NCBI GenBank assembly: GCA_028700185.1
Contig: JAQVTF010000005.1
Location: 1-54,401, forward strand
Direction: 5' to 3'
Source: Desulfobacteraceae bacterium
GTDB lineage: Bacteria; Desulfobacterota; Desulfobacteria; Desulfobacterales; UBA2174
Length of the DNA stretch: 54,401 bases
Shown here one piece after another: positions 22,436 through 29,170 of this stretch. Below the pieces are notes generated by a model that saw nothing but the letters and a program-made list of their open reading frames with translations, was not told where the DNA came from and ran no database searches. A program made the position numbers and the translations under genes. How positions within the stretch are numbered: the stretch's first letter is position 1; the number at the start of each line of letters is the position of its first letter.

Positions 22436-22511
22436 TGGAGCGGGCAACGAGATTCGAACTCGCGACTCCAAGCTTGGGAAGCTTGTACTCTACCAGCTGA
22501 GTTATGCCCGC
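22436..22511 (-). tRNA. tRNA-Gly (anticodon CCC), CCA encoded
   Basis: The reverse complement folds as a cloverleaf. The acceptor GCGGGCA pairs with TGCCCGC, and the D arm is ACTC-AGCTGGTA-GAGT. The anticodon arm CAAGC-TTCCCAA-GCTTG gives anticodon CCC, and the T arm is GCGAG-TTCGAAT-CTCGT. The discriminator is T and CCA is encoded in the DNA. It reads GGG codons. It occupies the position that metY holds in front of rimP-nusA in E. coli. Confidence 0.95.
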
Positions 22512-26502: not shown

Positions 26503-26853
26503 TCAGACTTGTTCGGCGGACAGGCGTGCCAGCTTGGCGAAGCCGGCCGGATCCGATACGGCCATTTCCGCCAGGACCTTGCGATCCAGGCTCACATTGG
26601 CCTGTTTGAGTCCGTGCATGAACCGGCTGTAGCTCATATCGTTGAGCCGCGCAGCGGCATTGATGCGGGCGATCCACAGGCGCCGAAATTCGCGTTTGCG
26701 GACCCGGCGGTCCCGGTAGGCGAAGGCTAAGGCACGATCCACGGTGTCGGCGGCGGTGCGAAACAGTTTGCTATGGCCGCCCCGAAACCCCTTGGCTTGA
26801 GCCAATACTTTGTTGCGACGGTGTCTTGCTTTGAATCCGCGTTTAACGCGCAT
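26503..26853 (-). CDS. rplT: 50S ribosomal protein L20
   Basis: A 116-residue L20 with [47 protein letters not shown] and the conserved [21 protein letters not shown]. It binds 23S rRNA early in 50S assembly and, in several bacteria, represses its own operon by binding the leader of rpmI or infC. Part of infC-rpmI-rplT. Confidence 0.97.
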
Positions 26854-26949: not shown

Positions 26950-27147
26950 TTAGCCGTTGGGCAGAAGGCGCCGCACGGCTTTCATGTTGGTGCCATCCAC
27001 GATCTGACCCTTGCGCAGACGGCGCTTGCGCTTGGCGGACTTGGTGGTCAGAATATGACTATGGTAGCTCTTGTTGTAAGCATACAGGCCTGTTCCGGTG
27101 CGCTTGAAGCGTTTCGCCGCGGCGCGGTTGGTCTTGATTTTCGGCAT
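26950..27147 (-). CDS. rpmI: 50S ribosomal protein L35
   Basis: A 65-residue L35 starting at MPKIKTNRAAAKRFKRTGTG behind AAGGAGTT; the ORF track adds 14 residues of leader. It is basic and of normal length, and lies between infC and rplT. The preceding gap holds overlapping inverted repeats that could be the L20-responsive operator. Confidence 0.96.
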   Translation of the reverse strand: MPKIKTNRAAAKRFKRTGTGLYAYNKSYHSHILTTKSAKRKRRLRKGQIVDGTNMKAVRRLLPNG

Positions 27148-27285: not shown

Positions 27286-27828
27286 TCAATGCGGCCGTGG
27301 TGCGAGGATCATCATCATGGTTCGCCCCTCGAATTTCGGCATCTGTTCCACCACTGCCTCCTCACCGATGGTCTCGGTGATCCGCTTCAGTAGCTCTCGT
27401 CCCTGGTTGGCCATGGTGATTTCCCGACCGCGAAACATCACCGTCACCTTGACCTTGTCCTTCTTGGCCAGAAATTTTCGGATATGGCCAATCTTGGTTT
27501 CGAGATCGTGATCGCCGGTTTTTGGACGAACCTTGATTTCCTTGACCTGGACAGTGCTTTGCTTCTTCTTGGCTTCCTGCTTTTTCTTGGTCTGTTCGTA
27601 CTTGAACCGACCATAGTCCATGATCTTGCAAACCGGCGGATTGGCGTTGGGCGAAATCTCCACCAGGTCCAAGCCATGTTCGGCAGCCGTTGCCAGGGCC
27701 CTGGCAAGTGATACAACACCGATCTGCCCTCCTTCGGCGTCGATGAGACGAACTTCCTTGGCCCTGATGTTTCGATTGATCCGGGTCTGGTCCGCACGCG
27801 TTGGAATGACGTGTCTCAAAAGAGCTAT
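27286..27828 (-). CDS. infC: Translation initiation factor IF-3, with probable AUA start codon
   Basis: IF-3 sequence is clear: TRINRNIRAKEVRLIDAEGGQIGVV, DLVEISPNANPPVCKIMDYGRFKYEQTKK, VKEIKVRPKTGDHDLETKIGHIRKFL and a C-terminal PKFEGRTMMMILAPR. It keeps subunits apart and proofreads the start codon. There is no suitable ATG or GTG near the expected N-terminus. A strong CAGGAGGTG sits 5-7 bases before an in-frame ATA, giving exactly 180 residues, the family length. infC genes are known to use poor starts (AUU in E. coli, AUC in Myxococcus) so that IF-3 represses itself; AUA fits that logic. A TTG 9 bases later is the main alternative. Confidence 0.9.
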   Translation of the reverse strand: MALLRHVIPTRADQTRINRNIRAKEVRLIDAEGGQIGVVSLARALATAAEHGLDLVEISPNANPPVCKIMDYGRFKYEQTKKKQEAKKKQSTVQVKEIKVRPKTGDHDLETKIGHIRKFLAKKDKVKVTVMFRGREITMANQGRELLKRITETIGEEAVVEQMPKFEGRTMMMILAPRPH

Positions 27829-27865
27829 ACCGGCACCTCCTGGTGTTGAAACGATTAGCTTTGAC

Positions 27866-28032: not shown

Positions 28033-28557
28033 TCAGGCCTGTTGGCCTTCCCGGGGCCTTCGGGTCAGGGTGTAGCGGGCCAGCAGGCTGTCCTGCCAGT
28101 AGGTTGCGGCGGGGTTGGCGAAAAACGTCTGAAACAACGCCAGGGCCTCCTCCCGACGCACCCCGGCCTTGATCCGTGGGCGGCGGGTGGCGTACAGCGG
28201 TCCGAGTCGTTCCAGCAGGCAGCCGGTCCCTCCGCCCATGGCGTCCTCGTAGGCATAGACGATGCTTCCGATCCCGGCGAGCAGAATTGCCCCGTAGCAC
28301 ATGAGGCAGGGTTCCAGGGTGACGGCCAGGGTCAGATGTTTCCCCTCGGGGGGCGGCGAGATCTCCTCCAGCCGCTGCAGGGCGTTCATCTCGGCATGGG
28401 CCAGTTCGCTGGGTCGGGGGCCGACGCTGTTACGGCGACCGGCGCGGACCAGGATTCCAGATTGGTCGGCAATGACGCAGCCGACGGGAAATTCGCCACG
28501 GGCCAGAGCGCTGCGGGCCTCGTCGAGGGCCGCTTGCATCAGTTCATCATCGGTCAT
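28033..28557 (-). CDS. Nucleoside/cytidine-type deaminase, TadA-like
   Basis: A 174-residue zinc deaminase. HAEMNALQ supplies the first zinc ligand and catalytic glutamate, and TLEPCLMCYGAI supplies the two cysteines (PCxxC). The fold resembles TadA, which converts adenosine 34 of tRNA-Arg to inosine. However, the C-terminal half (GCLLERLGPLYATRRPRIKAGV) departs from typical TadA, so a guanine- or other nucleobase deaminase role is possible. Its ATG overlaps the stop of the upstream HsdR_N gene (ATGA). Confidence 0.75.
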   Translation of the reverse strand: MTDDELMQAALDEARSALARGEFPVGCVIADQSGILVRAGRRNSVGPRPSELAHAEMNALQRLEEISPPPEGKHLTLAVTLEPCLMCYGAILLAGIGSIVYAYEDAMGGGTGCLLERLGPLYATRRPRIKAGVRREEALALFQTFFANPAATYWQDSLLARYTLTRRPREGQQA

Positions 28558-29120
28558 TTTTTAGCTGCCGTCGAGATCGTGTCAAGATGAGCGTCCAGGG
28601 CGCAACTGCCGTCGATTTCAAAGGCGTACACGATCCGTGCGGCCATCTCGGCCTGGCGGGGGTTCACCACCGCCATCGGCGTGGCCGCCAGGCGGCCTTC
28701 GAGGGCTTCACGGGTCAAGATGGCCTCCAGCCCGCTGCCGATGAGTTGTCCCCGGCTGCTCTCCAGCACATCGGCCTCCCGGCCGTTGGTCACCACCACC
28801 ACCGGTACAATGCGGGGGCCCAGGAGGCGGGCCAGCGCCAGCGCCGGGCGATGACGGGTGACGATGGAACCGGGACCGTAGCGGATCATCATCGCCGGCA
28901 CCCCTTCGAGGGAAACCAAAAAATCCAACGGCACCTCGGCGTGTTTTTCTCCGGCGGCGATCGGTACCTGCAGGCGGCATCGGATCTGCTGCCGGGAAAA
29001 ACCGCATTCCGTGAGCAGGCGCCGGGCGATCTGCTGGCGCAGGCGCTCGTCCTCGGTATCGGCCAGCGATTCGCCGGAAATCAGATCGGTCAACTGGCCA
29101 TAGACAACGGGTTGAGCCAT
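28554..29120 (-). CDS. HsdR_N (type I restriction enzyme R N-terminal) domain protein
   Basis: A 188-residue protein, starting at MAQPVVYGQLTDL behind GGGGGAAA. DERLRQQIARRLLTECGFSRQQIRCRLQVPI, VPLDFLVSLEGVPAMMIRYGPGS and VVVVTNGREADVLESSRG match the PD-(D/E)xK-like HsdR_N domain that occurs alone in many deltaproteobacteria. No HsdM, HsdS or helicase part is nearby, so this is not a restriction system. Function is unknown. It is coupled to the TadA-like gene by a 4-base overlap. Confidence 0.7.
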   Translation of the reverse strand: MAQPVVYGQLTDLISGESLADTEDERLRQQIARRLLTECGFSRQQIRCRLQVPIAAGEKHAEVPLDFLVSLEGVPAMMIRYGPGSIVTRHRPALALARLLGPRIVPVVVVTNGREADVLESSRGQLIGSGLEAILTREALEGRLAATPMAVVNPRQAEMAARIVYAFEIDGSCALDAHLDTISTAAKK

Positions 29121-29170
29121 GGCGTTTTCCCCCGGTTTCCTCCCCTGTGCCCAGGAGAGCATTTTGGTTC

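What the first reader, a model, noticed from the sequence alone, without database searches (positions are those of the whole stretch)
27826..27843. infC appears to start at an AUA codon
No ATG or GTG exists near the expected IF-3 N-terminus. A strong CAGGAGGTG is placed correctly before an in-frame ATA, and starting there gives 180 residues, the family length. infC is the one gene known to use deliberately poor starts for autoregulation (AUU in E. coli, AUC in Myxococcus), so AUA would be a further variant.
Basis: partly seen in the sequence, partly recalled or inferred. Interest (0 to 1): 0.6.

Follow-up and report, generated by a model that had tools for sequence, protein, structure and literature searches.

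The report
IF3 gene starting at AUA codon
The gene for translation initiation factor IF3 in this sulfate-reducing bacterium really does appear to start at the rare codon AUA, as it does in almost all of its relatives, which extends a known self-regulation trick (a deliberately poor start codon) to a whole bacterial order; AUA at this gene had already been shown in Staphylococcus aureus.

Summary
On the minus strand, AGGAGGTG (27841-27834) stands 7 nt (counted from GGAGG) before an in-frame ATA (27828-27826). Starting there gives a 180-residue IF3, the E. coli length. In one genome this motif is no better than chance (7 matches, 7 in the reversed control), so the weight lies in the comparison. 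Of 141 readable, non-duplicate infC loci from the window's order (Desulfobacterales by the named relatives), 138 have ATA, 2 ATC, 1 ATT and none ATG, GTG or TTG. Elsewhere in the phylum about 33 of 59 assignable loci have ATA. In 81 ATA loci no ATG/GTG/TTG lies between the upstream in-frame stop and the conserved core, so a non-canonical start is forced. In GC-rich members ATA is 9% of Ile codons in the gene body but 50 of 51 starts. Neighbouring rpmI and rplT start at ATG. The rival downstream TTG is restricted to the genus. Most likely IF3 represses its own weak AUA start, as with AUU in E. coli; this is inferred. AUA at infC is already shown in S. aureus and annotated in Streptococcus suis and Azospirillum, so this is a new, lineage-wide member of a known kind.

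The parts
27834..27841 (-). Shine-Dalgarno sequence AGGAGGTG, 7 nt (from GGAGG) before the start codon
   Evidence: across 137 ATA loci of the order, G at 80-85% at -12, -11, -9 and -8, spacing 7 in 89 of 136
27826..27828 (-). AUA start codon of infC
   Evidence: ATA in 138 of 141 readable loci of the order
27286..27828 (-). infC, translation initiation factor IF3, 180 residues from the AUA
   Evidence: TIGR00168 E 1.2e-69, 233 bits against a cut-off of 60; alignment with E. coli IF3
27823..27825 (-). second codon GCT (Ala): synonymous site conserved next to the AUA
   Evidence: GCT in 89 of 105 Ala second codons in the order against 13-23% of Ala codons in the gene body
27817..27819 (-). in-frame TTG, the rival downstream start (judged not used)
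   Evidence: 16 nt from GGAGG; present only in the genus
26950..27147 (-). rpmI (L35), next gene, ordinary ATG start
   Evidence: TIGR00001; ATG in 135 of 138 loci
26503..26853 (-). rplT (L20), ordinary ATG start
   Evidence: TIGR01032
25397..26425 (-). pheS, downstream in the same row of genes (true start not determined)
   Evidence: TIGR00468
22963..25395 (-). pheT, end of the row of genes
   Evidence: TIGR00472

Best explanation
infC of this Desulfobacterales bacterium is initiated at AUA. The 30S subunit is held at the site by a long Shine-Dalgarno duplex. The ordinary initiator tRNA (anticodon CAU) pairs with A and U of AUA and mismatches at the third base. IF3 destabilises such initiation complexes, so when IF3 is plentiful its own mRNA is poorly initiated, and when it is scarce initiation rises: a negative feedback loop like that of the AUU start of E. 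coli infC. Shown here: the sequence, the lineage-wide conservation of AUA with its Shine-Dalgarno, the absence of any canonical start in many relatives, the ATG starts of the neighbouring genes, and a normal initiator tRNA. Inferred: actual initiation at AUA, and repression by IF3.
For: 138 of 141 readable loci of the order have ATA and none has ATG/GTG/TTG at that place (manual review of odd loci, tally). 64 loci of the order and 17 of other orders with ATA have no ATG/GTG/TTG between the upstream in-frame stop and the conserved core. In 51 loci with GC3 over 60%, ATA is 50 of 51 starts but 9.3% of Ile codons in the gene body (nominal binomial P about 1e-50, ignoring kinship). rpmI starts at ATG in 135 of 138 and rplT in 106 of 136 of the same loci, most of the rest looking like a one-residue register shift. 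Shine-Dalgarno positions are more strongly conserved at infC than at rpmI or rplT, as expected for a weak codon. Initiator tRNA-Met(CAU) with the GGG/CCC anticodon stem is present. Codon identity follows the tree: 19 changes against 27-30 in shuffles; canonical against non-canonical, 2 changes. Precedents: E. coli ATT, Streptomyces ATC and IF3 repression of GTC, S. aureus infC AUA by Ribo-Ret, Xanthomonas ATT shown by peptides.
Against: No protein or ribosome data exist here. The motif in this genome alone is not above chance. A few families of other orders seem to have moved to GTG, TTG or ATG (L035, L141, L046, L053, L170), so a non-canonical start is not strictly obligatory. Repression by IF3 was not tested.
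Confidence: 0.87

Rival explanations
1. Translation starts at the in-frame TTG three codons downstream (27819-27817), a normal if weak start codon, and the ATA is an accident of the leader.
For: TTG is a standard start and is conserved in the three genomes of the genus.
Against: It lies 16 nt from the Shine-Dalgarno, far outside the 5-9 nt seen in the order. It is absent outside the genus, while ATA is kept. Many relatives have no canonical codon at all.
Confidence: 0.04
2. Translation starts upstream at a TTG and runs through the ATA as an ordinary Ile codon, giving a longer IF3.
For: The window's frame is open for 79 codons before the core, with TTGs at -50 and -43.
Against: In the congeners L002 and L003 the frame is closed 45 and 34 codons before the core, with no canonical codon upstream of the ATA; in many relatives the stop lies just before the Shine-Dalgarno. 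Ile codons in the gene are mostly ATC/ATT, so an ordinary Ile would not be ATA in 50 of 51 GC-rich genomes.
Confidence: 0.02
3. AUA is the start, but it only sets a low constitutive level and is not used for IF3 feedback in this lineage.
For: Feedback has been shown only in other species; a poor codon lowers yield by itself (about 10% of AUG in S. aureus reporters).
Against: IF3 of the window is a full-length orthologue aligned to E. coli IF3 throughout, the tRNA is ordinary, and the review counts AUA among codons discriminated by IF3.
Confidence: 0.13
4. The AUA is converted to AUI by the TadA-like deaminase encoded just upstream, and so read as AUG; editing would set IF3 level.
For: A TadA-related deaminase directly precedes infC in 61 of 97 ATA loci of the order with enough flank; the genome has a separate true TadA; the AUA has conserved neighbours.
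Against: 36 ATA loci of the order and all 20 ATA loci of other orders with enough flank lack it upstream; the neighbouring bases do not depend on its presence (Fisher P 0.18 and 0.83); U-A-G-C does not fit the UACG target known for TadA (own knowledge); AUA occurs at infC in unrelated bacteria.
Confidence: 0.01

Closest known systems
E. coli infC with AUU start, repressed by IF3
   Same: Same gene, same operon neighbours (rpmI, rplT, pheS, pheT), 180 residues, Shine-Dalgarno plus AUN start with a third-base mismatch
   Different: AUA instead of AUU; longer Shine-Dalgarno; no thrS directly upstream here, a deaminase gene instead; feedback proven only in E. coli
Staphylococcus aureus infC with AUA start (Ribo-Ret, PMC13009471)
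   Same: Same gene and the same AUA codon; extended Shine-Dalgarno reported there too
   Different: Different phylum; experimental evidence exists there, only comparative evidence here
Streptomyces infC with ATC and sigR with GTC starts (PMC5472188)
   Same: IF3-discriminated start used as a regulatory device
   Different: Other codons; sigR is not IF3 feedback on itself
ATA infC starts in NCBI annotation (Streptococcus suis, Azospirillum plasmid p5)
   Same: ATA as annotated start of infC
   Different: Unrelated lineages; the Azospirillum copy is plasmid-borne next to rpsU

Membership tests
infC genes with an IF3-discriminated (non-NUG) start codon | Encodes IF3 | tested here: met
   TIGR00168, 233 bits against a cut-off of 60
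infC genes with an IF3-discriminated (non-NUG) start codon | Start codon not ATG/GTG/TTG, preceded by a Shine-Dalgarno at proper distance, conserved in relatives | tested here: met
infC genes with an IF3-discriminated (non-NUG) start codon | No usable canonical start nearby | tested here: met
   In the window only a TTG at 16 nt from GGAGG; in 81 ATA relatives none at all
infC genes with an IF3-discriminated (non-NUG) start codon | Protein N-terminus maps to that codon | not testable with these tools
   needs peptides or ribosome profiling
IF3 autoregulation (E. coli type) | Excess IF3 lowers, shortage raises, translation from that codon; change to AUG abolishes it | not testable with these tools
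   needs a reporter assay
IF3 autoregulation (E. coli type) | Ordinary initiator tRNA with anticodon CAU | tested here: met
   One tRNA-Met(CAU) with GGG/CCC anticodon stem found
IF3 autoregulation (E. coli type) | Gene order infC-rpmI-rplT | tested here: met
   E. coli
A-to-I edited start codon (considered) | Editing enzyme tied to all AUA loci and to their sequence context | tested here: not met

The most novel reading that the evidence does not exclude
In Desulfobacterales the AUA is not just any poor codon but a specifically selected one within an extended signal (purines at -3 and -2, mostly G at -2; GCU as second codon), so that AUA, rather than AUU or AUC, gives a distinct IF3 set-point or needs these neighbours for productive initiation.
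Probability: 0.25. Interest if true: 0.5.

Novelty: new member of a known kind. Interest (0 to 1): 0.35.

Why it matters
Gene finders that allow only ATG, GTG and TTG will place the IF3 start wrongly throughout this order. More usefully, the survey shows that a deliberately poor start at infC has been kept across a whole order with no switch to AUG in 141 loci, and that the exact codon (AUA) is conserved even in GC-rich genomes. That makes a testable question: why one lineage holds AUA where E. coli holds AUU and Streptomyces AUC.

Tried and rejected
Upstream and downstream TTG starts: rejected by spacing and by relatives. Known RNA leader (e.g. L20 leader): no Rfam match near infC; folding of the leader is not unusual (z -0.71); no promoter or terminator by simple consensus. 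Motif count in the single genome: not above control. Small hairpin with the AUA in its loop (AGC-AUA-GCU): 102-112 of 136 loci pair at each of the three positions, but when the downstream base departs the upstream one follows clearly only in the UCU codon group, so no good covariation, and three pairs are too few to be stable. Editing of AUA by the upstream deaminase: rejected. One paper on initiation from all 64 codons was not held. Paper searches for AUA starts of infC in Desulfobacterota found nothing; the library lacks most subscription journals, so this is not proof of absence.

Full report
What is there. The window is contig C15 of a 3.29 Mb draft genome. The two other genomes of its genus are named records of Desulfobacteraceae (UBA2174 and HyVt-13; same contigs as L003 and L002). 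infC lies on the minus strand at 27286-27828 in the row infC-rpmI-rplT-pheS-pheT. Reading the strand gives CAGGAGGTG CCGGT ATA GCT CTT TTG. ATA is at 27828-27826, seven bases after GGAGG. The frame gives 180 residues; E. coli IF3 from its ATT is also 180 residues and aligns throughout.

Is it more than chance? Within one genome, no: the bare motif occurs seven times, as often as its reversed control. The evidence is comparative. I collected infC loci from the genus, the order and the phylum and from named genomes. 205 remain after removing duplicates, including E. coli. An automatic rule (longest Shine-Dalgarno, in-frame start-like codon 4-10 nt away) plus manual review of the odd cases gave, for the order: ATA 138, ATC 2, ATT 1, one locus cut by a contig end; no ATG, GTG or TTG. 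For other orders of the phylum: ATA 33, ATC 14, ATT 5, CTG 2, GTG 2, TTG 2, ATG 1, three unassigned. Sampling caveat: loci were taken from the better-scoring matches, with many families represented but not evenly. Families in the order are code numbers; names come from the separate set, whose loci I counted with the order.

Three checks against artefact. First, 64 loci of the order and 17 of other orders with ATA have no ATG, GTG or TTG anywhere between the upstream in-frame stop and the conserved core, so some non-canonical start is unavoidable. This is the argument that was accepted, with peptides, for ATT in Xanthomonas (PMC5559785). Second, codon choice: in loci with GC3 above 60%, ATA makes up 9.3% of the Ile codons in the gene body but 50 of 51 starts. 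So ATA itself, not just any Ile codon, is kept. The nominal binomial P of about 1e-50 ignores kinship and should be read only as 'not chance'. Third, the same pipeline finds ATG at rpmI in 135 of 138 loci and at rplT in 106 of 136 (most of the remainder look like a one-residue register shift). On a tree of IF3 the codon changes 19 times, against 27-30 when labels are shuffled, and canonical against non-canonical changes twice.

How it most likely works. The Shine-Dalgarno is more strongly conserved than at rpmI and rplT, which fits a site that must compensate for a poor codon. The genome has an ordinary initiator tRNA with anticodon CAU, so AUA would be read with a third-base mismatch. Such codons are discriminated against by IF3 (review PMC4611024). 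Feedback of IF3 on infC is established for E. coli, and IF3 repression of a GTC start was shown for sigR in Streptomyces (PMC5472188). The simplest reading is the same feedback loop with AUA in place of AUU. Initiation at AUA is strongly inferred; feedback in this lineage is inferred by homology only.

What is known already. AUA at infC was seen by retapamulin profiling in Staphylococcus aureus, where autoregulation was also proposed (PMC13009471). In my outgroup sample NCBI's annotation uses ATA for infC in Streptococcus suis and an Azospirillum plasmid copy, and the Aeromonas sequence reads ATA too; E. coli, Vibrio, Legionella and Listeria have ATT. So the kind and the codon are known; the order-wide, near-exclusive use in Desulfobacterales was not found in the literature searched.

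An unexplained extra. Around the AUA, the order keeps purines at -3 and -2 (G at -2 in 106 of 135, T never), unlike rpmI and rplT (G at -2 in 5-7%) and unlike other orders. It also keeps GCT as second codon (89 of 105 Ala codons, against 13-23% in the body). A second-codon preference is common in highly expressed genes (own knowledge), so only the -2 base is hard to explain. A TadA-like deaminase gene precedes infC in 61 of 97 ATA loci of the order with enough flank. I considered A-to-I editing of the AUA and rejected it: many ATA loci lack the gene, and the context does not depend on it.

Noticed in passing
window 28033-28557 (-): A TadA-like deaminase (Pfam dCMP_cyt_deam_1; 66 bits against TadA's cut-off of 150) lies directly upstream of infC and does so in 61 of 97 ATA loci of the order with enough flank; a true TadA is elsewhere in the genome (C177). 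Its substrate is unknown.
   Followed up: partly
window 27829-27831 (-), and infC loci of the order among L002-L220: Order-specific conservation of purines at -3 and -2 (mostly G at -2) before the AUA, absent from rpmI and rplT starts and from other orders; no explanation.
   Followed up: partly
L158, L150 (and perhaps L145): infC of some families in other orders seems to start at CTG; in L158 no ATG, GTG or TTG lies between the upstream stop and the core.
   Followed up: partly
L035, L141, L046, L053, L170: A few families in other orders seem to have moved to GTG, TTG or ATG at infC; L046 and L053 keep an ATA or ATT three codons further on, as a possible relic.
   Followed up: partly
L225 (Azospirillum brasilense plasmid p5) and L239 (Paenibacillus plasmid): Plasmid-borne copies of infC, in Azospirillum beside rpsU and annotated with an ATA start.
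   Followed up: no
window 28554-29162 (-): Protein with a type I restriction HSDR_N-like domain (PF13588) whose gene overlaps the start of the deaminase gene by four bases; a similar gene lies next to the deaminase in the congener L061.
   Followed up: no
window 22439-22511 (-): tRNA gene after pheT (Rfam RF00005, 66.6 bits).
   Followed up: no
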